DNA of 64,000 nt from Achromobacter sp. UMC71 (GTDB taxonomy: Bacteria; Pseudomonadota; Gammaproteobacteria; Burkholderiales; Burkholderiaceae_B), in the NCBI RefSeq assembly GCF_014170305.1, contig NZ_LZZT01000031.1, forward strand, positions 1-64,000, given 5' to 3'. The position numbers were made by a program, and so were the translations under genes. The notes below the pieces were generated by a model that saw only the letters and a program-made list of their open reading frames with translations, had not been told where the DNA came from and searched no databases. Numbering within the stretch: position 1 is the first letter of the stretch; every line of letters begins with the position of its first letter. Below, in pieces: positions 19,680 to 47,643 of the stretch.

Positions 19680-19706
19680 TAAACCACCCCGTCTTCGCGC
19701 GGACAA
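19680..19706 (+). promoter_or_regulatory. Sigma-28 (FliA)-like promoter for the peptide operon
   Basis: TAAA at 19680-19683, exactly 15 bases, then GCGGACAA at 19699-19706. The flagellar class-3 consensus is TAAA-N15-GCCGATAA, so the -35 and spacing are perfect and the -10 matches at six of eight positions. Transcription would start near 19713, giving a leader of about 75 bases to the peptide ATG. A fliA gene is in the adjacent operon. Confidence 0.6.
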
Positions 19707-19777
19707 GTTATGCGAGCCGGCTGATACCCGGACTCTCCATCCAACGCATGCCGCGAGGCGTGCCGATGTCCTGAAAC

Positions 19778-19782
19778 AGGAG
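19778..19782 (+). promoter_or_regulatory. Ribosome-binding site of the 44-residue peptide
   Basis: AGGAG five bases before the ATG at 19788. This strong, well-spaced site is the best evidence that this very short frame is translated. Confidence 0.7.
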
Positions 19783-19787
19783 CAACC

Positions 19788-19922
19788 ATGAGCCAGCCCC
19801 CCGTTACCACTCCCCAGCCCGTCGCCGGCCAGAACGATCCCAAGCGCTTCACCTGGACCGCGTCCAACCAGCAGCGTCGTGGTCAATCCGTGCCCGTTCC
19901 CGCAGGCAGCAGCGGCAAGTAA
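19788..19922 (+). CDS. 44-residue peptide, putative substrate of the SagB-YcaO system
   Basis: A short gene with a strong AGGAG site, first in the operon and 42 bases before the SagB-YcaO gene. The product starts MSQPPVTTPQPVAGQNDPKR, continues FTWTASNQQRRGQSVPVP and ends AGSSGK. It is rich in Pro, Gln, Ser and Thr, has no Cys, is basic in its second half and has no signal peptide. YcaO enzymes act on ribosomal peptides, and precursors are usually small genes next to them, so this is the obvious candidate. Possible modification sites include T22, T24, S26, S34, S41, S42 (azoline-type), D17 or N16/N27 (hydroxylation), or Lys and the C-terminus for ATP-grasp ligation. An intrinsically disordered export substrate or chaperone-like peptide is an alternative. 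The modification role is inference. Confidence 0.6.
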   Translation: MSQPPVTTPQPVAGQNDPKRFTWTASNQQRRGQSVPVPAGSSGK

Positions 19923-19964
19923 GCGAACGAGGCCTGCGGCGGCAGCCCCGCGCAGGCGCCGCCG

Positions 19965-22145
19965 ATGCAACTGGATCTTCCTTATGTGTTGATGCCCGGA
20001 AGCCTGCTGCATGGCGAACGCCTGCAATGCCGGCTGCCGACGAGCACGCTGTCGCTGAATGCGCCGGCCCGCGTCTTGCGCGCCTTGCATGAATTCGACG
20101 GTAGCCTGACTCCACGCCAATGGCTGCAACGCCGGCAACGCGAAAACTGGCATGCCGAATCCGTCAACGGCCTGCTGCACACCTTGATCGAAGAAGGTGC
20201 GCTGGTCTGCGTTCACGACGCGCCGCAACACTTGTGGGCCTACGCCAAAAATCCTCGCACGTTGGGCCAACAACCCGATGCCAAGGCGCTGCGAGTGTTG
20301 ATGGATGTCGCCCAACAGCGTTTGAACGCACCGCCAGGCGATGGTGCAATAGCGCTCGATAGCGGTGGCCCGGCCGCCGCATTGCATGCGCTGCTGGCCA
20401 GGCGGCGGTCTCGGCGCAGCTTCGGCCTGGCCGCCGTGGACACACCGACGTTGACGTCTATCCTTTGGGCCGCCGCCGGCATCATCACCGAAGCCGACGC
20501 GACGCGGACCACCAGTCCATCGGCGGGCGCCCTTTATCCCCTGCACTATTTCTACGTCAACCTGCGGGTCGGCAATGCTGCGGGCGACGATGTACCGCGG
20601 GTACTGCCTACCGGGGTATACCGTCTTGCCGCGGGTCCTGTCGGCCGCTTGCATTACGTACCGATCGATACGGATCTGTCGCGCGCTTGCGCCGCGTTTT
20701 CCTCGCCGCAACTGCTGGACCAGGCACAGGGCGTACTGGTGATCGCGGCCGACTTCTCGGCCAGCGCGATGAAATACGGCCTGCGGGCGTTGTCCTACGT
20801 ACCGCTTGAGGCGGGCCATGCCGCCCAGAACGCCATGCTGGCGGCGGCATCAGGCGGTTGCCATGCGGTTGAGATCGGCGGCTTCATTGAAGACGAGCTG
20901 GGCCGTCTGCTGCGCTTGCCGACCGGCATCGTACCGATCACGACCGTGTTAATCGGCTCGGCAGGCTCCGAGTCCGACGCACCCTCTGATGACGAATTCG
21001 ACTGGGTCGACCTACACGCAGGCGGGGACGCTGGCTTTTATTTGTGCCGCGCCCGCTGCGACCCCTCGCATCCGTGGTCATGGGGACGCGATGCACAACC
21101 CGCCCGGGCCCGGCTGAAAGCCGTGATGGAAAGCCGCGAGCGCGCAGCGTTGCTGCAACCGCGGGACCTGGTGGCGGCGCGACGGCAAGATCTGCCCGGT
21201 GCCGTGCATCCGGCCCACGTGCTGCGCTATCGCGATGCCCAATACCGTCGACAGGCCTTTCCCTACCAACGCTTTGACGAGGGGGCCACCTACTGGTGGA
21301 AGGAAGCCCATGACGTATTCGCCGACCAGCCGTGCTTCATGCTGGCGGACCTGGTGTATCTGGAAGAAGCACTGACCGATCTGCGTCGCCCCACTGCCTA
21401 CACCAGCGGCAATACCTCCGGCGTCGCCTGTCATGCCTCAACAGAGGCGGCGCTGGAAAATGCGGCACTGGAATTGATTGAACGCGACGCCGTCGTGTGC
21501 GTGTGGCTGGGGCAGGCCGCCCACGCCGTGGATGAAGCCGCGCTGCCTGGGTTTGTGCAAGCCCGTGTGCAGCGCTTGCGGACGGCTGGCCTGCAGGTCG
21601 AACTGCGCAGCCTGCCATCGCCATACTGCCAGGTCGCCTTCTGTTTTGGGCAGTCGGTCTCGCACGCCTTCACGCGGGTCGCCAGCAGCGCTGGCTACAC
21701 GCTTGACTTGGCCATGGACCATGCGCTGATGGAACTGGAAGCGCAGGTGTACGTGACGATGCATCAACCCCAGCCGGCCGTCTGGCGCCCGGCGCAAGTG
21801 CAAGAAGCCGCCTGCCATGCCCAGCTATACCGGCAGAGAGCATATTTCCGCCGCGCCGACCACTTGGTGTCTTCACCGTTGCCGCCGCTGCGTCCCGCCA
21901 ACGGCGCGCAGGACTGGAACGGCCTGGTCGAGCACCTGCGTCGCGATGGTCAGCGGCTGATTGCCGTCGACCTGAGCGAGGGTGCGCCGCTGCGTACGCC
22001 TACCGTGCGCGCATTCATACCTGGCTTGATCCCACTGAAATTCGGTGTCGGGAACGCGGCTGAAGGGCACCCCGCCTATCAACGCACGTTGCAGGCCACT
22101 GGCGCACCTCGTCGCCAGCATGCCTTCCCCCACCCCTTCAATTGA
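19965..22145 (+). CDS. SagB-type dehydrogenase / YcaO fusion protein
   Basis: A 726-residue protein in three parts. Residues about 10-80 look like a small winged helix (LNAPARVLRALHEFDG...), perhaps a peptide-recognition element. Residues about 140-350 are nitroreductase-like, of the FMN-dependent SagB type (RRSRRSFG, TSPSAGALYPLHYF). Residues about 430-726 form a YcaO domain (AYTSGNTSGVACH, ENAALELIERDA) ending in a Pro/His/Phe tail (AFPHPFN). In thiazole/oxazole-modified peptides YcaO cyclodehydrates Ser/Thr/Cys using ATP and SagB oxidises the rings to azoles. A ThiF/E1-like partner, common in such systems, is not encoded here; the N-terminal region may replace it. The gene follows the 44-residue peptide and probably modifies it. 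Domain calls are firm; substrate and chemistry are inferred. Confidence 0.8.
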   Translation: MQLDLPYVLMPGSLLHGERLQCRLPTSTLSLNAPARVLRALHEFDGSLTPRQWLQRRQRENWHAESVNGLLHTLIEEGALVCVHDAPQHLWAYAKNPRTLGQQPDAKALRVLMDVAQQRLNAPPGDGAIALDSGGPAAALHALLARRRSRRSFGLAAVDTPTLTSILWAAAGIITEADATRTTSPSAGALYPLHYFYVNLRVGNAAGDDVPRVLPTGVYRLAAGPVGRLHYVPIDTDLSRACAAFSSPQLLDQAQGVLVIAADFSASAMKYGLRALSYVPLEAGHAAQNAMLAAASGGCHAVEIGGFIEDELGRLLRLPTGIVPITTVLIGSAGSESDAPSDDEFDWVDLHAGGDAGFYLCRARCDPSHPWSWGRDAQPARARLKAVMESRERAALLQPRDLVAARRQDLPGAVHPAHVLRYRDAQYRRQAFPYQRFDEGATYWWKEAHDVFADQPCFMLADLVYLEEALTDLRRPTAYTSGNTSGVACHASTEAALENAALELIERDAVVCVWLGQAAHAVDEAALPGFVQARVQRLRTAGLQVELRSLPSPYCQVAFCFGQSVSHAFTRVASSAGYTLDLAMDHALMELEAQVYVTMHQPQPAVWRPAQVQEAACHAQLYRQRAYFRRADHLVSSPLPPLRPANGAQDWNGLVEHLRRDGQRLIAVDLSEGAPLRTPTVRAFIPGLIPLKFGVGNAAEGHPAYQRTLQATGAPRRQHAFPHPFN

Positions 22146-22156: not shown

Positions 22157-23059
22157 ATGACCCCGTTTCCGGTTCACGATGCGCCCGAGGCGCTGACGAT
22201 CGTCCAGCACCTGAAGGCGCAAACCCCGTTTGCCGACGCCTGCTCAGCGATGCAAGGCCAGACATCATCGCAATTGCTGGCGATTGCGTTGCCGCCCGGC
22301 CTTTACCAGGGATTGCAGGACGCCGCAATCCAGGCGATCGAGGCGCACGGCCTGCACGGCTGGCTGTCGGCCGAAGGCCGCTACGACGATCACAACTACC
22401 AGTCGCTATCGCTGGTGCACAACCCCGACATGCACGACCCCGGCGTGCACGACGTGCACCAGGCCACGCTGGGCACCTCAATGAATCCGATCAGCGAGTT
22501 CTACTACAACTCGGTGGAGCGCCATCGCACCCTGAAGAACACCTACTTCGATTCGTATGGCTTTCGGGTCCGCACGCCCGCGGCCCGGCTGGGCGCGTTG
22601 GGATCGTTCCTGGATCAGTGCGGCCTGACGCTGATCCGTTCCCGGCTATCGGTGCTGATCGGCAAACGCGGCATCACAGCGGATTTCATGGACGGCTGGC
22701 ACCGCGACGAGCCGGTGTTCGAGAACCTGCGACTGAACATCCCGCTGACGTCCGACCCGGCGTACCGCCTGCAGATCGAGCACGCCAAGGACACTCCCCA
22801 GGCCGATTCCGACACCATGACCGAGCACTTCCTGGCGCCCGGCCATGCCTACACCTTCAATACCAACATCCCCCACCGGGTGTATGTGAAAGAACCCAGC
22901 AATACGCCCCGCATCCACCTGGTGCTGGGGTTTGCGCCCTGGTTCGATCATGACGCCCAACGTGACAGCTGGCAGGCCAACCGGCACTTCGGCACGACGC
23001 ATCCCTTCGACCTGCTGCGTGGCGGCATGTTGCATCCCGACCTGAAGGCATCCACATGA
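22157..23059 (+). CDS. Putative 2-oxoglutarate/Fe(II) dioxygenase (aspartyl-hydroxylase-like)
   Basis: A 300-residue protein with jelly-roll dioxygenase features: GWHRDEPVFENLRLNIPL supplies an HxD-like pair around residue 181, NIPHRVYV supplies the distal His near 239, and the following IHLVLGF strand carries an Arg near 251 for 2-oxoglutarate. This arrangement resembles the aspartyl/asparaginyl beta-hydroxylase fold. The start is the ATG at 22157 with AAAGG seven bases upstream; the upstream stop of SagB-YcaO is 12 bases away. Between a YcaO enzyme and an ATP-grasp enzyme it is a likely tailoring hydroxylase for the peptide. Family assignment is moderate and the substrate is unknown. Confidence 0.65.
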   Translation: MTPFPVHDAPEALTIVQHLKAQTPFADACSAMQGQTSSQLLAIALPPGLYQGLQDAAIQAIEAHGLHGWLSAEGRYDDHNYQSLSLVHNPDMHDPGVHDVHQATLGTSMNPISEFYYNSVERHRTLKNTYFDSYGFRVRTPAARLGALGSFLDQCGLTLIRSRLSVLIGKRGITADFMDGWHRDEPVFENLRLNIPLTSDPAYRLQIEHAKDTPQADSDTMTEHFLAPGHAYTFNTNIPHRVYVKEPSNTPRIHLVLGFAPWFDHDAQRDSWQANRHFGTTHPFDLLRGGMLHPDLKAST

Positions 23060-24174
23060 AACACAATATCGTTCTGCTCGCCTCGCACAGCCGCGAAAGC
23101 GCCGCCAAGGAAAAGCAGTACCACGCCGCGGCCCACGCGTTGGACCTGGACGTCGTTCCCTACCCCGACGCCCATACCCTGGGTGTGTTCGCCTGCAGCG
23201 ACTTTCGTAGCGTGGATGCAGCCAATCTCGCCGCGCTGCACCGTGTAGCCGGACCCGATGTCCTGGCCACCACTATTGCCACGCAAAAATCCCTGGCCTA
23301 TCGCCATTTCGCGCGCTGTGGTTTCAGCACGCTTTGGACGCATGCTCCCATGCGCGCCGAAGACCTGCTGCTGGACCTGTCCTACGCCATCATCGTCAAG
23401 CCGGACAAGGGCAGCGGCTCGTTCGCCGAGCACCCCTGGGCCTACCAGCGCTATGACAGCCTGCGCCACTTTCATGACTGGCTGGTGGCCCAGGATCTGC
23501 TGGAAGCCTTCCTGGCCTATCAGAACGACCCCAACTCCTGGTACGGCCGGTATCTGACGATGGAGTACATCGGCGACAGCGACGTGTATACCGCGGCGGC
23601 CGTGTCCGGTCCGGAAAAGATCGTGGTCCACGAAGGCAGCCGCCTGCGATTCCCGCGCGATTCGATGCAGTGTGAATGGATGCTGTTGGGCCAACACCAC
23701 CCCCGCCACGAGCAGATCGGACGCATGATCCAGTCGCTGCACGATATCGGCCTGCGGCAGTCCATCATCTATATACAGTGCGTGGAAAAGGACGGCGAGC
23801 TGTGTCCCATCGACATCAACCTGCGTCCCGGCACCATGCCGGATCGGGCTTTCCACGGACTGGGCCTGCCGTTCTACCCCGCCGCGCTGGCCTACATGCT
23901 AGGCCTGGCACAAACCCTGGAATTCTCCTGGCCAACTCCCTATGTGGGCATCAGGCGGCTGGTGTTACCCTTGCAGCATGGCCGACGCCAGGCGGCATTC
24001 GGTGCGGGATGCGTACCGTTGATTCGAGAGCTGGCGTACGATTCAAGCCGCCCCTACGACCTTGGCCACGCATGGCCCATGTTTGCGGTCACCGGGCACG
24101 ATGCGACGCACTGCGCCCAGCTTGCCGAATCCCTGGCAGGCGATCTGCAACTGTCCGCCGTCGCCCCTCTCTGA
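23056..24174 (+). CDS. ATP-grasp enzyme, first of two in the island
   Basis: A 372-residue protein whose ATG overlaps the preceding stop (ATGA). IIVKPDKGSGSF near residue 112 is a nucleotide-binding Lys and glycine loop, and CPIDINLRPGTMPD near 251 provides the metal-binding D-x-N strand typical of ATP-grasp ligases. These enzymes join a carboxylate to an amine or hydroxyl via an acyl phosphate. In peptide clusters they install macrolactam or macrolactone links or add amino acids. It is probably the third modifying enzyme of this operon. The substrate is not known. Confidence 0.7.
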   Translation: MKHNIVLLASHSRESAAKEKQYHAAAHALDLDVVPYPDAHTLGVFACSDFRSVDAANLAALHRVAGPDVLATTIATQKSLAYRHFARCGFSTLWTHAPMRAEDLLLDLSYAIIVKPDKGSGSFAEHPWAYQRYDSLRHFHDWLVAQDLLEAFLAYQNDPNSWYGRYLTMEYIGDSDVYTAAAVSGPEKIVVHEGSRLRFPRDSMQCEWMLLGQHHPRHEQIGRMIQSLHDIGLRQSIIYIQCVEKDGELCPIDINLRPGTMPDRAFHGLGLPFYPAALAYMLGLAQTLEFSWPTPYVGIRRLVLPLQHGRRQAAFGAGCVPLIRELAYDSSRPYDLGHAWPMFAVTGHDATHCAQLAESLAGDLQLSAVAPL

Positions 24175-24197: not shown

Positions 24198-24761
24198 ATG
24201 ACCCAAGCCCCCGTTCCCCCACCCTTTCTAGAACACTACGCCCAAGCGCTGGAGCGCGGCGACAACGACGCCGCACTGGCCGTGCTGCAGCACGCCCGAC
24301 AGGCGCAGCCTCGCTCCGGTGAAGTCCTGGCGGTATTGGCCGCGCACCACATGCAACGCGGCGAACCCGATGCGGCCGAGGCCGCCTTCATTGGCGCCTT
24401 GCAGCTTGAACCCGTGCTGGCCACCGCACGCTTTCAGCTGGGCCTGCTGCAGTTCACCAGCGCGCGGCCCTTGGCCGCGTTCCAGACCTGGCAACCGCTC
24501 GAAGACCTCGGTGAAGTCCACTTCCTGGTGCTGTTCAAGCGCGCCTTCGCGGCGCTGGCGATCGACGCCTTCGACGATGCGCTGCTGCTGCTTGAAAAAG
24601 GCATCGCCAACAATCAAGAGAATGCGCCGCTGAACCACGACATGCGCATGGTCGCCGCGCATATCCAGACCCTGCAAGGCCGCGCCGACGACCCCGCGCC
24701 TGGCGAACAAAACGAAGCCGCAACCCAGTTTGTGCTGGCATCCTACAAGCAGAACCTGTAG
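24198..24761 (+). CDS. TPR-repeat protein of the peptide operon
   Basis: 187 residues beginning MTQAPVPPPFLEHYAQALER, with three to four tetratricopeptide-like helical pairs (ALERGDNDAALAVLQHARQAQP, RGEPDAAEAAFIGALQLEP and a later AIDAFDDALLLLEKGI). There is no signal peptide. TPR proteins act as scaffolds or as chaperones for secretion substrates. Located between the ATP-grasp gene (23 bases before) and the 128-residue gene (8 bases after), it may hold the peptide or its enzymes, or guide the peptide to the export apparatus encoded opposite. That role is speculative. Confidence 0.6.
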   Translation: MTQAPVPPPFLEHYAQALERGDNDAALAVLQHARQAQPRSGEVLAVLAAHHMQRGEPDAAEAAFIGALQLEPVLATARFQLGLLQFTSARPLAAFQTWQPLEDLGEVHFLVLFKRAFAALAIDAFDDALLLLEKGIANNQENAPLNHDMRMVAAHIQTLQGRADDPAPGEQNEAATQFVLASYKQNL

Positions 24762-24769: not shown

Positions 24770-25156
24770 ATGATTGACGGCATTGGGCGCCTGGCCCAGC
24801 TTATTCAGCAGCGGACCGCGGCCGGCGGACGCGCGGGCAATACCAATAAGGCCGACAAGGCCATCCGCGCCAAGGGCTCGGCCAAGACAGAGGAACCCCC
24901 GGCGTTCACCGAACTCGTGATCCGTGTCGGGGCCCTGAACCCCGATGACCCCGGCAGGGAGCGCAAAGCCTTTCGGTACTTTCTGGAAGCTGCCCTGCTC
25001 TCGGACCTGGGCACGAACCTGATCAATGACCCTAAATTCCATCAGCTGGTGGACATCGTTCAGCAGCGCATGGAAGCGCAGCCTGAACTGTTGGCGGCCA
25101 GCCGGCGCGCCGCGCGCTTGCTGCTGGCCATGCCCAAAGAAACGACCGAAAAATAA
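24770..25156 (+). CDS. Uncharacterised 128-residue protein closing the peptide operon
   Basis: Starts MIDGIGRLAQLIQQRT; has a flexible basic, Gly/Ala-rich segment to about residue 42, then a compact helical part (AFTELVIRVGALNPDD, RKAFRYFLEAALLSDLG, NDPKFHQLVDIVQQRMEA). I do not recognise a family. It follows the TPR gene by 8 bases and ends just before a shared terminator. The floppy N-terminus plus helical body is compatible with an exported protein or a secretion chaperone, but nothing in the sequence proves it. Confidence 0.5.
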   Translation: MIDGIGRLAQLIQQRTAAGGRAGNTNKADKAIRAKGSAKTEEPPAFTELVIRVGALNPDDPGRERKAFRYFLEAALLSDLGTNLINDPKFHQLVDIVQQRMEAQPELLAASRRAARLLLAMPKETTEK

Positions 25157-25180: not shown

Positions 25181-26299
25181 TCACGTGCGAATCCAGTCCG
25201 CCAGCGACCGGCCGTCCGGCGCCTCGACGCCGCGTAGTGCCCGCAAAGCCAGCGCCTGGAGCTCGTCTGGATTCTGCAATGCGCCGCTCAACACCGCCTG
25301 GGCGAAACGCGCCGACAGCGACGCCGGGTCCAGGCGCAGGGCCAGCGCTATGTGGTGTTCGGCCTCATCGTGCTGGCCGGCCAGGGCCAGGCCAATGGCC
25401 ACCGCGCCATGGCTTTCGCCGAAGTTTCGGTCCAGTTCAAGGGCTTGTTGGAACGCCATGGCGGCGCCCGCCACATCGCGGCCCAGCAGCCGTGCCCAAC
25501 CCAACCCGTGCCAACTGCCGATATGCTCGGGCATCAGGGCCGTGGCCCGCAGAAATGCGGCCTGGGCCGCACCGGCATCCTGCAGCAGCAAATGCGCGAT
25601 GCCCATCGACGACCAGGCCCGCCCTTCGTTTGGCCGCGCCTGCACCACCGGCGCCAGCGCCGCCAGGGCGCCAGGCGCATCCTTGATCGCCAAGGCCAAA
25701 GCGCCCCGCGCGGTCAACGCCTCCAGCGACGGCGGCTCGCCAGCCAGCGCCAGATCAGACCACAGCCGGGCCGCGGCGAAATCGCCGACATCCACGGCCA
25801 TCAGGCTTAGCACGCCGGCAGCCTCGGGTTGGGTACGCAACAGGTCGGCACGCATGCCGGCCAGCGCCAGGCTTTCTTTCAGCCGCCCAAGGAAATGCAG
25901 CGTACGCAAGCGGTTGGCCCAGGCGTGGTCGGGCAGTTGCCCGGATGCCTGCAGTGCCGACCAGTCGGCCTCGGCTTCGTCATGCCGGCCCGCATAATGC
26001 AGCAAGCTGGCTTTTGCGGCTGCCAGATCCGCATCGTCCGGATAGCGCTGGCAAAGCGCCTGCTGCAATGCCAGCGCCTCGTCCCAGCGACCCTGCGCGG
26101 CCAGCCAGGCGCCGCGTCGGTACGCCAGGTACGGAGCATCGCCCGCGCTGGCCTGCGCCGCGTCCAGATAGGCCCCGGCTCGTTCGTGCAGGCCCAGGCT
26201 CAGGGCCAGTTCGAACGCGTCCACCGCCAAGGCGGTGTTGTCCGGATCTTGCCGCAGGTAGCCGTCAAAACGGTCCAGGCGGTCTATGGGGTTCGACAT
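25181..26299 (-). CDS. TPR-repeat protein at the end of the flagellar operon
   Basis: 372 residues of consecutive tetratricopeptide-like repeats (YLRQDPDNTALAVDAFELA, AAQGRWDEALALQQALCQRYP, GAAMAFQQALELDRNFGE and others), no signal peptide. I start it at the ATG at 26299 (MSNPIDRLDRF), which has AGGA upstream; an in-frame start 11 codons earlier is possible. It follows fliA by 61 bases and ends at the terminator. Its partner TPR protein lies across that terminator in the peptide operon. A cytosolic scaffold or export chaperone role is plausible but not shown. Confidence 0.6.
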   Translation of the reverse strand: MSNPIDRLDRFDGYLRQDPDNTALAVDAFELALSLGLHERAGAYLDAAQASAGDAPYLAYRRGAWLAAQGRWDEALALQQALCQRYPDDADLAAAKASLLHYAGRHDEAEADWSALQASGQLPDHAWANRLRTLHFLGRLKESLALAGMRADLLRTQPEAAGVLSLMAVDVGDFAAARLWSDLALAGEPPSLEALTARGALALAIKDAPGALAALAPVVQARPNEGRAWSSMGIAHLLLQDAGAAQAAFLRATALMPEHIGSWHGLGWARLLGRDVAGAAMAFQQALELDRNFGESHGAVAIGLALAGQHDEAEHHIALALRLDPASLSARFAQAVLSGALQNPDELQALALRALRGVEAPDGRSLADWIRT

Positions 26300-40810: not shown

Positions 40811-41539
40811 TTAGAATTCGCCCAGTTTCTGGACGGCACGACCGGTCATTTCGTCGATGAACTGGGCGCTCTTTTGCAGACTTTCAAAGTGGCGCATCAC
40901 GTCGATCATGCCGACCATCTCGCGCGCCGGATCCACGTTCGATCCTTCCTGATAGCCTTGCAGCACCGACGACTCGCCTTCCCGCGCCAGTTGGGCGCGG
41001 CCTTGCGCTGCCGCGTAGACGCCGCCGCCCAGTCGCGTCAGGCCTTGCGGATCCGTGAATGACGCCAGGCTCAGCTTGTCGACAAAGCGGCCCTGGTCGT
41101 AGACGTTGCCCATCGGATCAATCCGCGGTGCGGTCGACGTCAGGCGAATCTCGCCGCCCTGCCCCATGACCAGATCGCCGCTCGCCGTCGCCAGGCGACC
41201 CTGGCTATCCACATGCAATGACCCCTGCCGCCCATATAGCGTCTTGCCGTCACGGGACAGTTCAAGAAAGACGGCCTCGCCCGTGAGCGACAGGTCCAGC
41301 GGGCGGCCGGTGTAACGCACCGCGCCGGGCCGCATGTCGGAATACGTGGCCGATGGCGACGGCGCGTCAGCGCCCTGAGTGCGCCGTTCCAGCACGTCCA
41401 TCTGCGTCTCGAATGCCACGCCGTTCACGAGTTCGCGTTTGTAGGCAGGCGTGCGCACATTGGCCAGATTCACGGCGATCGCCGTCAGGCGGTCCTGATC
41501 CACGCTCATGCCCTGCCCGATCAGATTCATTATTTCCAT
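40811..41539 (-). CDS. flgF: Rod protein FlgF
   Basis: 242 residues. LTAIAVNLANVRTPAYKREL near the N-terminus, GRPLDLSLTGEAVFLELSRD in the centre, and GYQEGSNVDPAREMVGMIDV, MRHFESLQKSAQFIDEMTGR at the end follow the FlgF pattern. AGGAG is six bases before the ATG. A 36-base gap to flhA upstream is one of the larger gaps in the operon and shows no obvious promoter. Confidence 0.9.
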   Translation of the reverse strand: MEIMNLIGQGMSVDQDRLTAIAVNLANVRTPAYKRELVNGVAFETQMDVLERRTQGADAPSPSATYSDMRPGAVRYTGRPLDLSLTGEAVFLELSRDGKTLYGRQGSLHVDSQGRLATASGDLVMGQGGEIRLTSTAPRIDPMGNVYDQGRFVDKLSLASFTDPQGLTRLGGGVYAAAQGRAQLAREGESSVLQGYQEGSNVDPAREMVGMIDVMRHFESLQKSAQFIDEMTGRAVQKLGEF

Positions 41540-41575: not shown

Positions 41576-43654
41576 TCAGGCGCGGTTCGCGGCTTCCTGC
41601 AAGGCGGCAACGGAAACCGCCGAAAATGCTTTCAGATCGATGCTGCCGGGGATCTCTGCCATGGACAGCACCCGCAGATGCGGCAACACGCGTTCGGTCA
41701 ACATGCGCAGATGGCGCCGCAGGTCCGGCGAACACAGGAGTACCGGCAGCAGATTGGCCTTCATCATGGCTTCGGCCTGCTGCACGAGACTGCCGATCAA
41801 CTGGTCCGCTACGCGCGGCTCGATCGCCAAGCGACCGCCGTTCTCAGCCGTATGGCGCAGGGAATGGCCGATATGCGCTTCGGTCAACGGGTCTAGCGTG
41901 ATGACGTGCAACGTACTGGCGTCGCCCGACAGCGAGCGGCAGATCGCCTGCCCCAGGCGCTGGCGCACCTGTTCGGCCAGAAAGCCCGGATCCCGCTGGT
42001 TGCGACCCGCATCCGCCAACACTTCCAGGATCGCCTCCAGATTGCGAATGCTGACCTTCTCGCGTACCAGCGCCTGCAGCACCTTCTGCACTTCGGTCAT
42101 GGACAGGATTCCCGGCGTCAGTTCTTCCACCAGGCCGGGCTGTGCCAAGCGCACACGCTCGAGAAGCCGGTCGGTCTCGGCGCGGGTCAATAGATTGGCG
42201 GACTCGCGCCGCAGCACCTCGGTCAGGTGCGTCATCAACACGGTAAGGCCGTCGATCAGCGTGTAGCGGCCCTGCTGCGCATTAGCCTTCTCGGATTCCT
42301 CGACCCACACCGCCGGCAAGCCGTAGGTCGGATCCCGCGTTTCGATGCCACGCACGGTCTTGGTCACGCCTGCCGGGTGGATCGCCAGCCAGCGTTCCGC
42401 CATAGCCTGGCCCTTGCCCGCCGGCACGCCATACACCACGATCTCGTAGTCGTCCGGCCCCAACCGGGTGCTGGCGCGCACCTTGACCGAGGGAATGACC
42501 ATGCCCATTTCCTGCACGTACTGGTTGCGGAATGCGGCGATACGGTCGGCGAAGCCACTGAGTTCCATCACCGACGGCAGCAAGTGCGCGCCCGCCAGGA
42601 TCTCGATGGCTTCGACCTTCAAGGCATCATAGGGGTCACCTGCCGACACAGAAGCTGGCAACGCGTCCTCTGCGGGACTGTCCGCGGCGCGCTTGGCCCG
42701 CGCCGCCCGATGCGCCGCCCAGCCCAGCGCCAGCACGGTCACCGCCAGCAGGAATGCCGGCAACGCCGGAATGCCCGGCAGCGCCATCAGCGCGAACAGA
42801 GCCGCGCACACCAGGAACAGCGTCTTGGGAAACAGCGTGATCTGGCGCGCCACTTCCTGGCTGAAATTGCCGTCCGACGCCGAACGCGTCACGATGATGC
42901 CGGTGGCCACCGCGATCACCAGCGCCGGCACCTGCGTCACAATGCCATCTCCGATCGTCAGCAAGGTATAAACGCGGATCGCCTCGCTCCAGGGAATACC
43001 CAGTTGCATCACGCCGATCACCAGGCCGCCGATGATGTTGATGGCCATGATCAGAATGCCGGCAATCGCATCGCCCTTGACGAACTTGGACGCCCCGTCC
43101 ATCGCACCATAGAAGGCGGCTTCCTTTTCCAGCGTCTTGCGGCGCACCTGTGCCTGTTCCTGGGTGATGAAACCCATGTTCAGGTCGGCGTCGATACTCA
43201 TCTGTTGGCCGGGCATGCTGTCCAGCGTGAAACGCGCCGCCACCTCGGACACGCGCTGCGCGCCGTTGGTCACCACGACGAACTGCACCACGATCAGGAT
43301 CAGGAACACGATCAGCCCGATCACATAGTTGCCACCCACCACGTAGCCGCCAATGGCCGAAATCACACTACCGGCATTCGCCTCCGACAGGATCAGCCGC
43401 GTGGCGGCAACATTCAATGACAGGCGGAACAGCGTGGCGATCAGCAGCAGCGACGGAAACGTCGAAAACTCCACCGGCCGTGTCATGTAGAACGTCAGCA
43501 GCAGGATCAGAAAGGCGAAACTGAAATTTGCCAGGATCAGGAAATCCAGCGCCCCTGGCGGAATCGGCATGAACAGGACAATCAGCACGCCCATTACCAC
43601 CAGGACCATCACGATGTCCCGGTTGCTCGCCAGCCATTGCGACAGCCGGTTCAT
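41576..43654 (-). CDS. flhA: Flagellar export gate protein FlhA
   Basis: 692 residues from ATG 43654, overlapping the flhB stop (ATGA). The N-terminal half has about eight membrane segments and the FHIPEP-family stretch with ARFTLDSMPGQQMSIDADLN, GFITQEQAQVRRKTLEKEAA. The C-terminal half (from about residue 330) is the cytoplasmic nonamer ring that receives chaperone-substrate complexes. All conserved parts are present and full length. Confidence 0.97.
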   Translation of the reverse strand: MNRLSQWLASNRDIVMVLVVMGVLIVLFMPIPPGALDFLILANFSFAFLILLLTFYMTRPVEFSTFPSLLLIATLFRLSLNVAATRLILSEANAGSVISAIGGYVVGGNYVIGLIVFLILIVVQFVVVTNGAQRVSEVAARFTLDSMPGQQMSIDADLNMGFITQEQAQVRRKTLEKEAAFYGAMDGASKFVKGDAIAGILIMAINIIGGLVIGVMQLGIPWSEAIRVYTLLTIGDGIVTQVPALVIAVATGIIVTRSASDGNFSQEVARQITLFPKTLFLVCAALFALMALPGIPALPAFLLAVTVLALGWAAHRAARAKRAADSPAEDALPASVSAGDPYDALKVEAIEILAGAHLLPSVMELSGFADRIAAFRNQYVQEMGMVIPSVKVRASTRLGPDDYEIVVYGVPAGKGQAMAERWLAIHPAGVTKTVRGIETRDPTYGLPAVWVEESEKANAQQGRYTLIDGLTVLMTHLTEVLRRESANLLTRAETDRLLERVRLAQPGLVEELTPGILSMTEVQKVLQALVREKVSIRNLEAILEVLADAGRNQRDPGFLAEQVRQRLGQAICRSLSGDASTLHVITLDPLTEAHIGHSLRHTAENGGRLAIEPRVADQLIGSLVQQAEAMMKANLLPVLLCSPDLRRHLRMLTERVLPHLRVLSMAEIPGSIDLKAFSAVSVAALQEAANRA

Positions 43655-44730
43655 ACCGCCCCCCCCGGCGCGCTGCGCGCATTGCGTTGGGCGATCAGCC
43701 AGACCATGATGCGCGCCACATCGGCGTACAGCGCGGTCGGAATCGCCTGACCCATGTCGCCTTGGAAGAACAGCGCGCGTGCCAGTGTGGGACTGCGTAC
43801 CACCGTCACGCCGCAACGAGAAGCCTCGGCCCGCATGCGTGCGGCCAGCGTGCCGGCCCCTTTGGCCAGCATCACGGGAGCGGCCATCTCGCCCCGCTTG
43901 TATTGCAGCGCTACGGCAATATGGGTGGGATTGACGATCAGCACATCGGCCTGACCTACCTGGCGCACGGACGCCGCTTTTTGGAGCATCTCGATGCGCA
44001 GCCCGCGCAGGCGCGAGCGCACGCGTGGATCGCCTTCGCGGTTCTTGACCTCGTCTTTCACGTCGCGCTTGCTCATACGCATCTTGCGCTTGAACTCGAA
44101 GCGGGTGTAGCCCAGGTCCATCAACGCCAGCAACAAGGCCGCGAACGCCAGTTTCAGCGCCATGGAGGTCAACATTTCCAGCAACTGTTTCAACGCCAGG
44201 AAAGGCGTGCGCTCGCCCAGTAGATAAAACAACGACCTCAGGTCCTTGATCACCAGGTACAGCACCCACGCCAGCACGGTTACCTTGAGTACGCTCTTGA
44301 CCGCGTCATACACCGTGCGCAGCGAAAATAGCCGTTTCAGGCCACTGGCCGGATTGATGCGGTTCAGATCTGGTTTGAGCGGAAATCCGCTCCACACCGG
44401 CCCTGTCTGCGCAACATTGGCGATCAGGGCAGCGGCGCCCACCGTCAGCGCGAACGGCGCAACGATATGCAAGGCATCGGCTCCCACGCGACCGATCAAC
44501 GACACCACCGACGCCGCGGAGACATGCATGCCCAGGCCATGAACGAGGGCCGCACGCGCCAGCGCCGCCAGCGCCTGCACGGCCTCCCAACCCCATGCAT
44601 ACATCACCGCGGCGGCCGTCAGCATGGCAACCGCGCCCGTCAGGTCGGGGCTGCGCGCCACCGAACCGCGGTTACGCGCCTGCTGCAGCTTGAACGGGGT
44701 GGCGGCTTCGCTCTTATCGAATTCCTGCAT
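43651..44730 (-). CDS. flhB: Export switch protein FlhB
   Basis: 359 residues from ATG 44730 (MQEFDKSEAATPFKLQQARN), sharing one base with the fliR stop. Four membrane segments, then MSKRDVKDEVKNREGDPRVR and the autocleavage site in VNPTHIAVALQYKRG. The intact NPTH motif means the gate can switch from rod/hook to late substrates. That matters here because no filament gene is seen; the late substrate should be something else. Confidence 0.96.
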   Translation of the reverse strand: MQEFDKSEAATPFKLQQARNRGSVARSPDLTGAVAMLTAAAVMYAWGWEAVQALAALARAALVHGLGMHVSAASVVSLIGRVGADALHIVAPFALTVGAAALIANVAQTGPVWSGFPLKPDLNRINPASGLKRLFSLRTVYDAVKSVLKVTVLAWVLYLVIKDLRSLFYLLGERTPFLALKQLLEMLTSMALKLAFAALLLALMDLGYTRFEFKRKMRMSKRDVKDEVKNREGDPRVRSRLRGLRIEMLQKAASVRQVGQADVLIVNPTHIAVALQYKRGEMAAPVMLAKGAGTLAARMRAEASRCGVTVVRSPTLARALFFQGDMGQAIPTALYADVARIMVWLIAQRNARSAPGGAV

Positions 44731-45494
44731 CAGCGCACCGCCCCGTTCCAGACATCCGACGTCAGGCCGAAGATGCGCGACAGGCCCGACGGCATGAAGC
44801 GTGCCCAAGCGGCCAGCGCCGCCAGGCCCACCATGATTTTGATCGGCAGCGCGATCACGAATACGTTCATCTGCGGCAGTCCACGGGCCAGGATGCCCAA
44901 CCCCAGCTCGACCAGCAGCAACAATGCAGCGACGGGCGCGATCAGCATGAACCCCAGCCCGTACACGTTGCCCCAGGCTGCAATCACCGCGCGCACGTTC
45001 ACGTCCTGCGGAGAAAACCCGCCCACCGGCACGACCGTCAATGTGTAGGCAAGCCCCCGCAGCAAGGCATGGTGGCCGTCGAGCAGAAAGAACACCACGA
45101 CGCCGGTATACAAAAGCACCGACGTCATGATCGGCACCTGCGCGCGACTGATCGGATCGAACACCTGGCCGATGCCGAAGCCGATCTGGATATCCAGCGC
45201 GCGCCCGGCAAAGGCAATCGCCGAGAAGGCGCAGAAGATGCCGCAAGCCAGCAGCAAGCCGAACGAGAATTCCAGGGCGGCGGCCTGGATGAAGCCGCCC
45301 AGGTCGGTCGGCACCGGTTGGCCGGTCCGTGGCAAGGCCATGGCTAGCGTCATGGACAGCATGGCCACCAACAGCACGCGGGCGGTCGCCGGGATGGGAA
45401 ACTGCGTAAAGACAGGTGTGAAAGCCAGCATCACCGCGATGCGGATCGACACGAGGGCGGCCGTCGCCAGGAGAGGAATATCAATGGCAAACAT
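44730..45494 (-). CDS. fliR: Flagellar export gate protein FliR
   Basis: 254 residues from ATG 45494, seven bases after the fliQ stop; an ATG nine codons earlier overlaps fliQ and is less likely. Six or so membrane segments; ALDIQIGFGIGQVFDPISRA and ALEFSFGLLLACGIFCAFSA match the family. FliR forms the gate with FliP and FliQ. Confidence 0.93.
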   Translation of the reverse strand: MFAIDIPLLATAALVSIRIAVMLAFTPVFTQFPIPATARVLLVAMLSMTLAMALPRTGQPVPTDLGGFIQAAALEFSFGLLLACGIFCAFSAIAFAGRALDIQIGFGIGQVFDPISRAQVPIMTSVLLYTGVVVFFLLDGHHALLRGLAYTLTVVPVGGFSPQDVNVRAVIAAWGNVYGLGFMLIAPVAALLLLVELGLGILARGLPQMNVFVIALPIKIMVGLAALAAWARFMPSGLSRIFGLTSDVWNGAVR

Positions 45495-45501: not shown

Positions 45502-45768
45502 TCAGCGAAGTCCCGGCACATCCCGCAGCAGCGTGCTCGCGTATTGCATCAGAGTGCGCAGCATCCAGGGACCGAAGATCACCATGGCGACCACCGCCGC
45601 CACAATCTTGGGAATGAAAGTCAGGGACATTTCCTGCACCTGGGTCACCACCTGCAGGATGCTGATGGCCACTCCCACCGCCAGCGTCAGCAGCAGCACG
45701 GGTGCGCAGATCATCAAACCGGTCCAGAACAGGTCACTCATCAACTGGATGGCGAGATCAGGCCTCAT
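45502..45768 (-). CDS. fliQ: Flagellar export gate protein FliQ
   Basis: 88 residues, two membrane helices separated by VVTQVQEMSLTFIPKIVAAV, a classic FliQ pattern. AGGAG lies five bases before the ATG. The start overlaps the end of the upstream ATP-grasp gene by 11 bases, so the two are co-transcribed and probably translationally coupled. Confidence 0.95.
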   Translation of the reverse strand: MRPDLAIQLMSDLFWTGLMICAPVLLLTLAVGVAISILQVVTQVQEMSLTFIPKIVAAVVAMVIFGPWMLRTLMQYASTLLRDVPGLR

Positions 45769-46765
45769 GCGTGCTCCTGATTTCCAGCGTCGGCTCAGCC
45801 TCCGGCGGTTCGTCCGCAAAGACCGACGCCAGCATCAATGGGTACACGTTGGGGTGGATCATGGGGTGGCTGTTCATTTCAAGCAGCCACACGCGATCGT
45901 CGGCGTCGATCACGGCGTCCAGCGTGAACACCGAATTGCGCCGCAGCGGCTCATCAATGCCTCGGTAGAGCAGCGGGCCGGCATAACAGAACTGTGTGGC
46001 GATCTCCGTGGACACCGCGTTCCAGACGTCGCGATTCTTGAGCGTGACCCGGTCGTGCGGAGTCAGGTAGCGGAAATCCAACATCACTTCCACGCCCTCT
46101 GGCACCACGGAATCCAGGTGATAGCCTTGCCACGCCAGAATCTGCAAGGACGCGTCCAGGTCCATCACGAGGTCGAAATTTCCGCGCGGCTGTGTCGCGA
46201 TCTCGCGCAGTGTGCGCCGGCCATCGCCGATGATCTGCGGCGGCGTCAGCACTTCCAGCGCCGCCGGCTCACCATTCCAGAACCAGGCCTTGGCGCTGCG
46301 GCCACGAATGAATTGTTCGCAGAACTCGCCCGGCCCCAGCGCCAGCCCGCCTACCGGTGGCGCCAGCGGACCGAACGGACCCCGTATGCCCACGCCGAAC
46401 GAACTGATGGCAGGTTTGACGATATAGTCGGACACCAGTCCGGGGCCGTCCGTCCAGCTGGCCGTGACACGCAGGCCATTCGCCAGGGCATAGTCCTTGA
46501 ACAAGGTCTTGTCCGTGGACAACCCCCATGACTTCACCGGATAGGGCATCCAGCCGATGAAATCACCATCCCCGGCGAAAGGTCGCTGATACATCGTGCG
46601 CCCCTCGTGCTGGCGCACGAAGCGCGGATACAGCACGACCGTGCGGCCGTCGCAACGCAGCGTCATCTCGAACGTCAACGGGTCCAACGAGGCGTCCGCG
46701 CCATGTGCAAGCGCCCATTCACGAATGGGATGCAGATGCTTGATGGGACGAAACAGGAAGTACAT
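45758..46765 (-). CDS. ATP-grasp enzyme leading the flagellar operon
   Basis: 335 residues. SDYIVKPAISSFGVGIRGPF gives the ATP-binding Lys and glycine loop, PPQIIGDGRRTLREI resembles the loop of cyanophycin-synthetase-type ATP-grasp enzymes, and TLDAVIDADDRVWLLEMNSH supplies the metal-binding D and E-x-N. It is distinct from the other ATP-grasp protein of the island. Such enzymes form amide bonds on peptides or proteins. It is not a known flagellar gene, yet it is the first gene of the operon and its stop lies inside fliQ. It probably modifies the peptide or a structural subunit. No strong ribosome-binding site precedes the ATG. Confidence 0.75.
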   Translation of the reverse strand: MYFLFRPIKHLHPIREWALAHGADASLDPLTFEMTLRCDGRTVVLYPRFVRQHEGRTMYQRPFAGDGDFIGWMPYPVKSWGLSTDKTLFKDYALANGLRVTASWTDGPGLVSDYIVKPAISSFGVGIRGPFGPLAPPVGGLALGPGEFCEQFIRGRSAKAWFWNGEPAALEVLTPPQIIGDGRRTLREIATQPRGNFDLVMDLDASLQILAWQGYHLDSVVPEGVEVMLDFRYLTPHDRVTLKNRDVWNAVSTEIATQFCYAGPLLYRGIDEPLRRNSVFTLDAVIDADDRVWLLEMNSHPMIHPNVYPLMLASVFADEPPEAEPTLEIRSTHEA

Positions 46766-46865
46766 GAAAAACCCGGAGCAAACGGCGACTGCGGTGTATC
46801 AGCGCGAATTCGTGGAGGCTTGAAGGCGCTGGGCACCCATCTCAAGACGAAACTTATATTTGCAG

Positions 46866-46888
46866 AACATGTATGTTGTAACTGTCAA
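46866..46888 (-). promoter_or_regulatory. Possible promoter/operator region of the flagellar operon
   Basis: A perfect TTGACA (minus strand, 46888-46883) lies about 120 bases before the operon's first ATG, next to a palindrome AACATGTATGTT at 46866-46877. No good -10 hexamer occurs at 17 bases, so the promoter is tentative. The palindrome could bind a regulator. I see no flhDC-type or clear sigma-54 site. Confidence 0.3.
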
Positions 46889-46929
46889 CGAATGCAAAAA
46901 TCCTGGCAGAACATTGCGTTCAGCCTTAT

Positions 46930-47562
46930 CTAATGCGGTCTTTCGTACTTGACGCTACCTGCAATCACCCGCCTTGTTACATTGTCGGTATTGGGCGTTG
47001 TGTAGTGCATGAGGTAGCGCGGGAACAGGATCAGGTCGCCTTCACGGGGCTGGATGATGTTCACCAGGGCATGGCGCGGCACGACGAAACCGCCTCTGCC
47101 AACCGTGCCGCGGGGGTCCATCAGCACTAATTGGCCGCTGCCGTCCTTGGGCATGGTCAGGTAATAGACAAAGGCCAGGTCCGAGCCTTCGTGATAATGC
47201 GCGTGCACTGCGTCCTTGGCCTGACCCGACCGCTGCACCACGAACCACATGGTATGGTCGCGCCTGGCTTGGCGCACCTGGTCACCGTAGGCCTGCGCCG
47301 CGAAGTCGTCGCACTCTGACAAGATCAGTTCGCGGATGGCTTTCAGTTGAGGATTTCGGGTGCGCTTGAATATGCCCGTGTCGTAACGGGTATAGAGCGT
47401 TTCCCGAGTGGACGAGCGCTTCTCGTCGTTCAGCAAGCGGCTCTGGTTACGTTCCGAGAACGCCTGCAATGCGTCATGCAGACCGGCATCCACCTGGCCG
47501 CTTTCGCGCAGGTTGCAATGCATGATCGGAGTGGGCCACAACCATTGGATTTCGCGGGACAT
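46930..47562 (-). CDS. 2OG-Fe(II) oxygenase (PKHD/TIGR02466-like)
   Basis: 210 residues from ATG 47562 (MSREIQWLWPTPIMHCNLRE). VHAHYHEGSDLAFVYYLTMP gives the iron-binding HxH/E-type motif, followed by LVLMDPRG, LFPRYLMHYTTPN with the distal His, and RRVIAGS with the 2OG-binding Arg. This is the layout of a family of small putative dioxygenases acting on free or peptidyl amino acids. The gene has its own sigma-28-like promoter and points the same way as the flagellar operon, 164 bases ahead. It is a good candidate for another peptide or protein hydroxylase of the same system. An in-frame GTG seven codons earlier is an alternative start. Confidence 0.75.
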   Translation of the reverse strand: MSREIQWLWPTPIMHCNLRESGQVDAGLHDALQAFSERNQSRLLNDEKRSSTRETLYTRYDTGIFKRTRNPQLKAIRELILSECDDFAAQAYGDQVRQARRDHTMWFVVQRSGQAKDAVHAHYHEGSDLAFVYYLTMPKDGSGQLVLMDPRGTVGRGGFVVPRHALVNIIQPREGDLILFPRYLMHYTTPNTDNVTRRVIAGSVKYERPH

Positions 47563-47616
47563 GGATAAACCAGGCAAGCACACGCGGCGCGCCTTTCGCG
47601 CCGCTACATTCCTAAG

Positions 47617-47643
47617 TTATCCCCCTGGTCCGAAATCAGTTTA
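47617..47643 (-). promoter_or_regulatory. Sigma-28 (FliA)-like promoter for the 2OG-oxygenase gene
   Basis: On the minus strand TAAA (47643-47640) is followed by exactly 15 bases and GGGGATAA (47624-47617). Against TAAA-N15-GCCGATAA this is a perfect -35 and spacing and six of eight -10 positions, including GATAA. The start would fall near 47610, leaving about 50 bases of leader. Confidence 0.6.

What the first reader, a model, noticed from the sequence alone, without database searches (positions are those of the whole stretch)
19680..47643. A flagellar-type export machine interlocked with a peptide-modification system
A 44-residue peptide, a SagB-YcaO fusion, two different ATP-grasp enzymes and two 2OG-dioxygenase-like proteins flank a near-complete set of flagellar rod, ring, hook, export and sigma-28 genes. 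One ATP-grasp gene overlaps fliQ, and sigma-28-like promoters precede the two modification transcripts outside the operon. No flagellin, cap, junction, stator or chemotaxis gene is visible. The simplest model is a filamentless secretion machine whose late product is a ribosomally made, heavily modified peptide. Modification of hook or rod subunits is the main alternative. I know of no described system like this.
Basis: partly seen in the sequence, partly recalled or inferred. Interest (0 to 1): 0.95.

Follow-up and report, generated by a model that had tools for sequence, protein, structure and literature searches.

The report
Flagellar-type exporter for giant Rhs proteins
A flagellum-like machine with no filament and no recognisable motor is linked to giant, toxin-like repeat proteins and, in two of the genomes looked at, also to a small family of probably modified peptides, so it looks like an undescribed kind of protein export system.

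Summary
In detail: an export, rod, ring and hook operon with a sigma-28-like gene, flanked by a 44-residue peptide, a SagB-YcaO fusion and other modification-type genes. A complete flagellum and an injectisome lie elsewhere in the genome.

The window's FlhA belongs to a distinct clade (52-65% identity): 14 of 398 other order genomes, 3 of 344 in a class sample, 3 plasmids. No flagellin, stator or canonical FliG/FliM was found in the window or beside 17 relatives. Its N-terminus recurs in 18 of 21 machine-bearing genomes or plasmids, against 2 of 384 order genomes without the machine. C-termini show no similarity, as in polymorphic toxins.

But the set is no accident. It recurs beside machine and giant in G574 (another family) and on a second contig here, and three of its transcripts in this genome carry a promoter motif learnt from relatives' giants. 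Best model: a non-motile flagellum-derived exporter of giant Rhs proteins, with accessory modified peptides.

The parts
4465..19545 (-). giant YD/Rhs-repeat protein, 5026 aa, conserved N-terminus MVAIVSGNSLG..., LysM in its last third, own C-terminal tip
   Evidence: Pfam RHS_repeat 2.8e-163 and 9e-54, LysM 1.1e-5; N-terminus profile; N-termini of 7 full-length giants alike in 21 of 21 pairs, C-termini in 0 of 21
3320..3853 (-). displaced Rhs-type fragment
   Evidence: 98% identical to part of the giant gene
952..3174 (-). displaced Rhs-type fragment
   Evidence: 2956-3188 is 93% identical to part of the giant gene; start of its frame repeats the stretch behind the giant's LysM by eye; no Pfam match
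19615..19641 (-). weaker sigma-28-like site before the giant gene
   Evidence: 13.1 and 12.7 bits with matrices trained on relatives' giants only
19680..19706 (+). sigma-28-like promoter of the modification transcript
19788..19922 (+). 44-residue precursor-like peptide
   Evidence: aligned with the C45 66-residue peptide: score 45, shuffles 22.9 s.d. 4.7, fraction 0.001 of 2000 as high
19965..22145 (+). SagB-YcaO fusion
   Evidence: Pfam/NCBIfam; 3 copies in the genome
22157..23059 (+). 2OG-dioxygenase-like protein A (name by eye)
   Evidence: no database match
23056..24174 (+). ATP-grasp-like protein A (name by eye)
   Evidence: no significant match
24198..24761 (+). TPR protein a, chaperone-like
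   Evidence: homologue in 14 of 20 relatives
24770..25156 (+). p128, small protein specific to this machine
   Evidence: homologue in 10 of 20 relatives; no known family
25181..26299 (-). TPR protein b
   Evidence: homologue in 15 of 20 relatives
26361..27137 (-). sigma-28-like factor
   Evidence: Pfam Sigma70_r2/r4; 18 of 20 relatives
27149..27898 (-). FliP
27895..28221 (-). FliO-like
   Evidence: just below cut-off
28218..28532 (-). FliN
28609..29379 (-). FliM-position protein with SpoA domain only
   Evidence: canonical FliM of C10 does not match it
29379..30578 (-). FlgE hook protein
30590..30979 (-). FlgD hook cap
30985..31656 (-). FliK-position protein
   Evidence: no Pfam match; tblastn hits in 6 relatives
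31643..32101 (-). FliJ-like
   Evidence: just below cut-off
32098..33435 (-). FliI ATPase
   Evidence: 48% to C10 FliI
33432..34211 (-). FliH
34208..34729 (-). protein in the FliG position, not FliG-like; homologue in 13 of 20 relatives
34729..36156 (-). FliF
36174..36476 (-). FliE
36473..36910 (-). FlgC
36913..37290 (-). FlgB
37312..38427 (-). FlgI P-ring
   Evidence: 41% to C10 FlgI
38451..39050 (-). FlgH L-ring
   Evidence: 29% to C10 FlgH
39047..40009 (-). FlgA
40017..40799 (-). FlgG distal rod
   Evidence: 40% to C10 FlgG
40811..41539 (-). FlgF
41576..43654 (-). FlhA
   Evidence: PF00771 793 bits; tree
43651..44730 (-). FlhB
44730..45494 (-). FliR
45502..45768 (-). FliQ
45758..46765 (-). 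ATP-grasp-like protein B, overlaps fliQ by 11 bases
   Evidence: YheCD 2.6e-4, below cut-off; 73% to the C45 copy, 33% to G574
46930..47583 (-). 2OG-Fe(II) oxygenase B
   Evidence: PF13759 1.4e-14
47617..47643 (-). sigma-28-like promoter at the head of the 2OG-B/ATP-grasp-B/fliQ operon

Best explanation
The locus encodes a flagellum-derived, non-motile export machine: inner-membrane export gate, ATPase, MS-ring, rod, P- and L-rings and a hook, with no filament, no stator and no recognisable FliG (shown from sequence). Its conserved partner, and most likely its main late substrate, is the giant YD-repeat (Rhs) protein beside it, recognised by the conserved N-terminus MVAIVxGNGLG and aided by the two TPR proteins and p128 (association shown; export and chaperoning inferred). 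A sigma-28-like factor in the operon is taken to switch on the late genes through a TAAAC-N14/15-(C/G)GGAYAW-like promoter found before many giants and some TPR-a genes (motif shown; binding inferred). In this genome and in G574 an accessory set (precursor peptide, SagB-YcaO, 2OG oxygenase, ATP-grasp) has joined the system. The peptides share a core (PHKVGxPLGSGG in two of three), are probably azol(in)e-modified, and may leave by the same channel (inferred).
For: FlhA clade 52-65% identical, next best in the order sample at most 45%; 18 rows in one 100/100 branch. 13 machine genes found in 20 of 20 relatives, in the same order in 19. Giant N-terminus: 12 of 15 machine genomes against 2 of 384 others, p=1.4e-18; without the partial G428 match p=1.2e-16; in the 8 machine genomes that gave no seed 5 (4 without G428), p=1.5e-8 (1.1e-6). 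3 of 3 plasmids and 3 of 3 class-level machines found by FlhA alone. N-termini alike in 21 of 21 pairs, C-termini in 0 of 21. Motif trained on 7 relatives' giants: 10 of 19 held-out giants score 14 bits or more and 8 of 19 at least 16 within 250 bases upstream, against 1 and 0 of 400 random stretches; the C45 peptide operon scores 19.7, TPR-a of G566 16.2. Strict pattern: 3 matches in 6.34 Mb, each before a modification transcript. G574 set on the machine contig; peptide core 64% over 25 residues, codon-position differences 3/0/6 in 17 codons. No filament, stator or switch genes in 18 systems.
Against: No experiment. Two genomes (G441, G488) carry giants but no machine FlhA, so giants may have other routes or be remnants; three machine genomes (G223, G271, G526) show no giant by this profile, and G428 only a partial one (positions 25-72). 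9 of 19 held-out giants score under 14 bits, among them the window's own (12.7) and Undibacterium (11.4), and four of the ten good sites lie outside 74-110 bases: G848 -194, G470 -212, G805 -39, G441 -129. G574's modification genes have no motif of their own, and fliQ starts mostly have none. The C45 ATP-grasp gene has no site of 11.5 bits or more on its strand. Four other window sites score as high as the three of interest. Modification set absent beside 19 of 20 related machines; own and G574 are not sisters in the FlhA tree. The strict pattern was written after seeing two of its three sites, and its reversed control has 2 matches. A 5000- to 12900-residue chain is far longer than flagellar substrates that I recall.
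Confidence: 0.62

Rival explanations
1. One reading: the machine is primarily a secretion device for a heavily modified peptide.
For: Motif before three modification transcripts; no ABC exporter or C39-type peptidase gene recognised by eye beside either set; set recurs with the machine in G574.
Against: 19 of 20 related machines lack the set in the flanks read; full fusion found in 2 of 399 order genomes. The giant is the constant partner.
Confidence: 0.12
2. The modification enzymes act on the giant protein or on hook/rod subunits, and the small ORFs are carriers, cofactors or decoys.
For: Enzymes share the promoter motif with giants; the ATP-grasp-B gene overlaps fliQ.
Against: Three small ORFs, two with a clearly shared core, next to SagB-YcaO genes, the usual layout of precursor peptides.
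Confidence: 0.13
3. Machine and giant only travel on the same horizontally moved islands; the machine displays a hook-like structure and the giant leaves by another route.
For: Plasmid location of three relatives; giants without machine in G441 and G488.
Against: Association holds in three further families of the class at 54-57% FlhA identity, and a promoter motif recurs before giants.
Confidence: 0.2
4. A decaying second flagellum.
For: No filament or stator; FliM and FliG positions divergent; Undibacterium flgI is annotated in two pieces; FlgB, FlgC and the sigma gene not found in G371 and the sigma gene not in G805.
Against: 13 machine genes kept in 20 of 20 relatives with system-specific new genes.
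Confidence: 0.03

Closest known systems
Bacterial flagellum (hook-basal body)
   Same: Export gate, ATPase, MS-ring, rod, P/L rings, hook and hook cap, sigma-28-like factor
   Different: No flagellin, FlgL, cap, stator, FlgM, canonical FliG or FliM found near the 18 systems searched; own FlhA clade; giant Rhs protein beside it
Non-flagellar type III secretion (injectisome), including the Myxococcales forms of PMC3459982 (passages read) and the T3SS* of PMC10433427 (passages read)
   Same: Non-motile type III-type export derived from a flagellum (inferred here)
   Different: Keeps rod genes flgB, flgC, fliE, which PMC3459982 uses as flagellum-specific, and P/L rings and hook; the genome has its own injectisome-type locus on C15 (by eye)
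Rhs/YD-repeat polymorphic toxins (PMC3482391, passages read)
   Same: YD repeats, C-termini without similarity, displaced fragments
   Different: N-terminus MVAIVxGNGLG tied to a flagellar-type operon; in the passages read that survey names type III export of toxins in general and asks whether a flagellar system might deliver one RNase of firmicutes, but describes no such Rhs pairing
Azole-type peptide systems with SagB and YcaO; graspetides (PMC8939145, passages read)
   Same: SagB and YcaO domains, short precursor-like ORF next door, ATP-grasp-like protein
   Different: SagB and YcaO fused in one chain, 2OG oxygenases, sigma-28-like promoter motif, no dedicated exporter recognised; PMC8939145 says that, to its authors' knowledge, YcaO with ATP-grasp had not been reported before

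Membership tests
bacterial flagellum (motility organelle) | flagellin filament, junction and cap proteins | tested here: not met
   C10 FliC, FlgK, FlgL and a part of FliD give no hit in the window; in 17 relatives one FlgK cross-hit, on FlgE of Undibacterium
bacterial flagellum (motility organelle) | stator and switch (MotA/B, FliG, FliM) | tested here: not met
   no hits of the C10 proteins by tblastn in 18 systems; FliG-position profile against FliG probability 1.1%
bacterial flagellum (motility organelle) | rod, rings, hook, flagellar export gate | tested here: met
non-flagellar type III secretion (injectisome) | lacks flagellar rod genes flgB, flgC, fliE | tested here: not met
   all three present
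non-flagellar type III secretion (injectisome) | secretin | not tested
   no secretin search was run; FlgH/FlgI rings are present instead
Rhs/YD-repeat polymorphic toxins | YD/RHS repeats with interchangeable C-terminal tips | tested here: met
Rhs/YD-repeat polymorphic toxins | toxic activity and immunity protein | not testable with these tools
   last 399 residues of the window giant match no Pfam family
azol(in)e-modified peptide (TOMM) pathway | YcaO cyclodehydratase plus precursor peptide | tested here: met
   YcaO domain matched, below NCBIfam's SagD subfamily cut-off; precursor-like peptides in three sets
azol(in)e-modified peptide (TOMM) pathway | modified product | not testable with these tools
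   needs mass spectrometry

The most novel reading that the evidence does not exclude
A third use of the flagellar export machine: a motor-less hook-basal body that threads giant polymorphic Rhs proteins (those read in full: 4,314 to 12,948 residues) out of the cell by an N-terminal signal, and that in some lineages also exports azol(in)e-modified peptides made by a co-regulated set, so that protein toxin and peptide leave by one sigma-28-timed channel.
Probability: 0.3. Interest if true: 0.96.

Novelty: new variant of a known kind. Interest (0 to 1): 0.88.

Why it matters
Flagella and injectisomes are, as far as I recall, the two main uses of type III export. A flagellum-derived machine that keeps rod, rings and hook but drops filament and motor, pairs with giant Rhs proteins and occurs on plasmids would be an independent conversion of a flagellum into a secretion system. 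It would give Rhs proteins of these bacteria an export route and would, as far as I recall, set a length record for type III substrates. It would also be the first case that my searches show of a ribosomal peptide pathway sharing promoters with a flagellar-type machine. All of it is testable with two gene removals.

Tried and rejected
PMC2045201 is not held.

Considered and rejected: that the C15 FlhA is a second copy of this system (it lies in an injectisome-type locus, and apart in the tree); that the modification genes are a chance neighbour (motif and G574 speak against it); that the machine is a standard lateral flagellum; that the FliG-position protein is FliG or SctK; that the YcaO gene of G470 belongs to the set: its neighbourhood shows an ABC-2-like membrane protein by eye and no match to the set's peptide, 2OG or ATP-grasp.

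Limits of the counts: flanks end where contigs end. In one search my gene caller picked shadow frames over giant genes and its printed output was cut, so gene presence was recounted by tblastn. In one search I read only the plus frames of 18 giant loci, so only 8 gave a result; one search reads both strands of 27 loci: 24 giants with a start were scored, 5 of them training sites (the other two training giants, Variovorax and B. ubonensis, were not in that list), leaving 19 held out; two more (L129, L138) showed no start; G884 was not scored. One search scored at most 2 candidates per genome, so the window copy is not in its table (it is). The genome-wide absence of the fusion was tested in the 14 order machine genomes, not in the 3 class genomes, where only flanks were read.

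Full report
1. What is there. The window is G000:C31:1-64000 of a 6.34-Mb genome in 60 contigs. A minus-strand operon from 47.6 to 25.2 kb encodes 2OG oxygenase B, ATP-grasp-like B, FliQ, FliR, FlhB, FlhA, FlgF, FlgG, FlgA, FlgH, FlgI, FlgB, FlgC, FliE, FliF, a protein in the FliG place, FliH, FliI, FliJ, a protein in the FliK place, FlgD, FlgE, a short FliM, FliN, FliO, FliP, a sigma-28-like factor and a TPR protein. Facing it, a plus-strand run of genes holds the 44-residue peptide, SagB-YcaO, 2OG-like A, ATP-grasp-like A, a second TPR protein and p128. Back to back with that run lies a 5026-residue YD-repeat protein. The 2OG-like A and ATP-grasp-like A proteins match nothing held here.

2. 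The rest of the genome. FlhA occurs three times. C10 is a canonical flagellum with flagellin, MotA/MotB, FlgK, FlgL, FliM, FliG and chemotaxis genes (names read from sequence by eye and from matches to the window set; flagellin also by Pfam). C15 is an injectisome-type system (by eye). YcaO occurs three times: the window copy and two tandem SagB-YcaO fusions at the end of C45. The genome therefore does not seem to need the window operon for swimming.

3. A separate clade of machines. FlhA of the window has 54-64% identical relatives in 14 of 398 other genomes of the order; the next best matches fall to 45% or less. Three plasmid or large-replicon copies are 65% (Variovorax sp. PDNC026), 59% (Undibacterium sp. 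YM2) and 52% (Burkholderia ubonensis MSMB2035) identical. A class-level sample adds 3 of 344 other genomes, in three further families, at 54-57%. A maximum-likelihood tree puts the 18 copies of window, order and plasmids into one branch with 100/100 support, apart from 13 canonical copies. By tblastn at E<=1e-3 with the window proteins, FliQ, FliR, FlhB, FlhA, FlgF, FlgG, FlgI, FliE, FliF, FliI, FlgD, FlgE and FliP are found in 20 of 20 relatives, FlgB and FlgC in 19, FlgH, FliN and the sigma factor in 18, TPR-b in 15, TPR-a and FliH in 14, the FliG-place protein in 13, p128, FliM and FlgA in 10, FliO in 4 and FliJ in 2. The order from FliQ to FliP is the same in 19 of 20; in G253 the FliQ-FlhA block stands at the other end. 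Homologues of the C10 flagellin, FlgL, FliD part, FliM, FliG, MotA, MotB, FlgM, FlgN, FliS, FliL and FlgJ were found neither in the window nor in the 17 order and plasmid neighbourhoods. The one FlgK hit, in Undibacterium, lies on FlgE, and CheA hits in G219 and G428 lie in flanks. The FliG-place protein is not related to FliG or SctK by profile.

4. The giant protein is the constant partner. The first 76 residues of ten giants next to machines were aligned, and the profile was run over the same 399 order genomes. It hits 14. With 15 machine genomes including the own one, the table is: both 12, machine only 3 (G223, G271, G526), giant only 2 (G441, G488), neither 382; Fisher p=1.4e-18, or 3.2e-17 without the own genome. 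G428 counts as a hit only by a partial match (positions 25-72, frame of 241 residues); without it p=1.2e-16. Seven of the 12 gave seeds, so part of this is by construction. In the 8 machine genomes that gave none, 5 have a hit (4 without G428), against 2 of 384: p=1.5e-8 (1.1e-6). The cleanest test is the class sample: the three machines found by FlhA alone all have the giant N-terminus beside the operon, in G884 cut by the contig end. The Undibacterium 12,948-residue protein, annotated as a tandem-95 repeat protein, also begins MVAIVNGQGLG. In all, 18 of 21 machine-bearing genomes or plasmids have such a giant (12 of 15, 3 of 3, 3 of 3), and in 13 of 21 it lies beside the operon in the stretch read. 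Seven full-length giants have N-termini alike in 21 of 21 pairs and C-termini (last 160 residues) alike in 0 of 21. That is the pattern of polymorphic toxins. The tip of the window giant matches no Pfam family.

5. A shared promoter. A scan for the sigma-28 consensus (recalled) before giants showed TAAAC-N14/15-(C/T)(C/T)GGATAA-like sites 86-134 bases upstream of seven of them, which became the training set. Of 19 giants outside that set, 10 score 14 bits or more and 8 at least 16 within 250 bases upstream: G566 20.5, G848 19.2, G219 18.6, 18.1 and 15.1, G805 17.7, G488 17.2, G470 16.4, G230 16.1, G441 14.5. Random 250-base stretches reach 14 bits in 1 and 16 bits in 0 of 400. Six of the ten lie at 74-110 bases, the others at 39, 129, 194 and 212, where the start codon may be misplaced or the hit chance. 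The other nine are G441 13.5, own 12.7, G274 12.3 (at 228 bases), G576 11.5, Undibacterium 11.4, G470 10.6 and 7.1, G371 5.8 and 4.7. TPR-a genes score 16.2 (G566), 14.5 (G274) and 12.7 (G219), seven others 11.5 or less; fliQ starts have none except G576 13.8. In the own genome the C45 site, 92 bases before the 66-residue peptide, scores 19.7 (19.1 with the matrix). The window sites 47643(-), 19680(+) and 19641(-) score 14.1, 13.6 and 13.1; chance gives about 4 hits of 12 bits and 1 of 14 in the window, and four other sites (4488, 4139, 3298, 5893) score 13.2-13.9. So their places, not their scores alone, make them notable. The strict pattern TAAACN15SGGAYAW has three matches in 6.34 Mb: 19680, 47643 and C45:343554, each before a modification transcript; the reversed control pattern has 2. 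I wrote this pattern after seeing the first two sites, so only the C45 match is independent. The ATP-grasp gene of C45 runs the other way and has no site of 11.5 bits or more.

6. The modification set. On C45 lie a 66-residue peptide, two SagB-YcaO fusions, a 2OG oxygenase and an ATP-grasp-like protein 73% identical to the window's B protein over 267 residues, next to an Rhs remnant at the contig end. The last 296 bases of C45 equal the first 296 of C31, but the same repeat also lies inside the giant gene, so adjacency is open. Of 16 machine or giant genomes searched, G574 alone has a full-length fusion (32%), on the very contig of its machine and giant; G470 has a distant YcaO on another contig, with none of the other set genes around it. 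In G574 the order is TPR-b, ATP-grasp, 2OG, 64-residue peptide, SagB-YcaO, a further gene, giant, a p128-like gene (by eye), TPR-a, sigma, machine. The 2OG is 53% and the fusion 45% and 41% identical to the C45 copies, the ATP-grasp 33% to window B, and the convergent 2OG/ATP-grasp pair is kept. The window's own 2OG proteins are not detectably related to the C45 one. The 64- and 66-residue peptides share RLPHKVG(M/L)PLGSGG(S/C)GD, with codon-position differences 3/0/6 in 17 codons. The 44-residue peptide is a more distant relative: alignment score 45 against 22.9 with s.d. 4.7 for shuffles, fraction 0.001 of 2000 as high. In the order sample, full-length fusions were found in 2 of 399 genomes, own and G574; eight others match with one half or, in G347, with both halves in separate frames. 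Own and G574 are not sisters in the FlhA tree, so the set was gained twice or lost often. The other 19 relatives lack it in the stretches read.

7. How it most likely works. Shown: the parts, their clade, the association with giants, the shared motif, the recurrence of the modification set. Inferred: the machine builds rod, rings and a short hook; the sigma-28-like factor then turns on late genes, as in flagella; giants are drawn into the FlhA/FlhB gate by their N-terminus with help from the TPR proteins and p128; their variable tips act outside or in a neighbouring cell. In this genome and G574 the modified peptide is a second late product. Without a dedicated exporter gene recognised nearby (by eye), the machine is the likeliest way out for it, but modification of the giant or hook is not excluded.

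8. What is known. Searches of the open-access library for flagellar systems with Rhs/YD-repeat proteins, filamentless flagella, YcaO with flagella, SagB/YcaO/ATP-grasp/2OG and peptide export by type III systems listed no paper whose title or opening abstract describes this pairing. Passages were read in PMC3459982, PMC3482391, PMC8939145, PMC10433427, PMC7861908 and PMC5374385; the rest were seen as listings. Subscription papers are mostly not held, so prior notice cannot be excluded. The machine is neither a flagellum nor an injectisome by the tests above. It works like a flagellar type III export system, and I call it a new variant of that kind.

9. Verdict. Observation confirmed, interpretation partly supported, and the finding grows: the broader discovery is the machine-giant pair, with the modification set as a real but rare accessory.

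Noticed in passing
G000:C10, L013-L016: Canonical flagellum with flagellin, MotAB, chemotaxis genes and its own FlhA; the genome does not seem to need the window operon for motility.
   Followed up: yes
G000:C15:335089-359100, L017-L018: Injectisome-type secretion locus (SctJ-like lipoprotein, needle-like protein; by eye).
   Followed up: partly
G000:C45:343554-351120 and window 1-296: Second modification set at the contig end; the last 296 bases of C45 equal the first 296 of C31, a repeat also found in the giant gene.
   Followed up: partly
L115 / NZ_AP018442.1:129783-168629: Undibacterium sp. YM2 plasmid pUYM01 gene of 38.8 kb, annotated tandem-95 repeat protein, begins with the same N-terminus as the Rhs giants.
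   Followed up: partly
L133, L137 (G470:C337:90922 and 92718): Two divergent giant genes with open frames of 5363 and 7112 residues back to back.
   Followed up: no
G441, G488 (L128, L135, L124): Giants with the conserved N-terminus but no machine FlhA in the genome; G441 has an open frame of 7719 residues, G488 one of 401.
   Followed up: partly
L090:6755-10255: MAG with a 40-residue Cys-rich peptide before a SagB-YcaO fusion 32% identical to the window's: another azole-type cluster, no flagellar gene recognised.
   Followed up: no
window 24770-25156: p128 is found in 10 of 20 relatives and matches no family; possibly a chaperone or an anti-sigma factor.
   Followed up: partly
window 3298 (-): A 13.2-bit copy of the promoter motif lies 124 bases before the Rhs fragment 952-3174.
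   Followed up: no
L107:14754-15983: G574 gene between giant and SagB-YcaO, lipoprotein-like by eye, no Pfam match.
   Followed up: no
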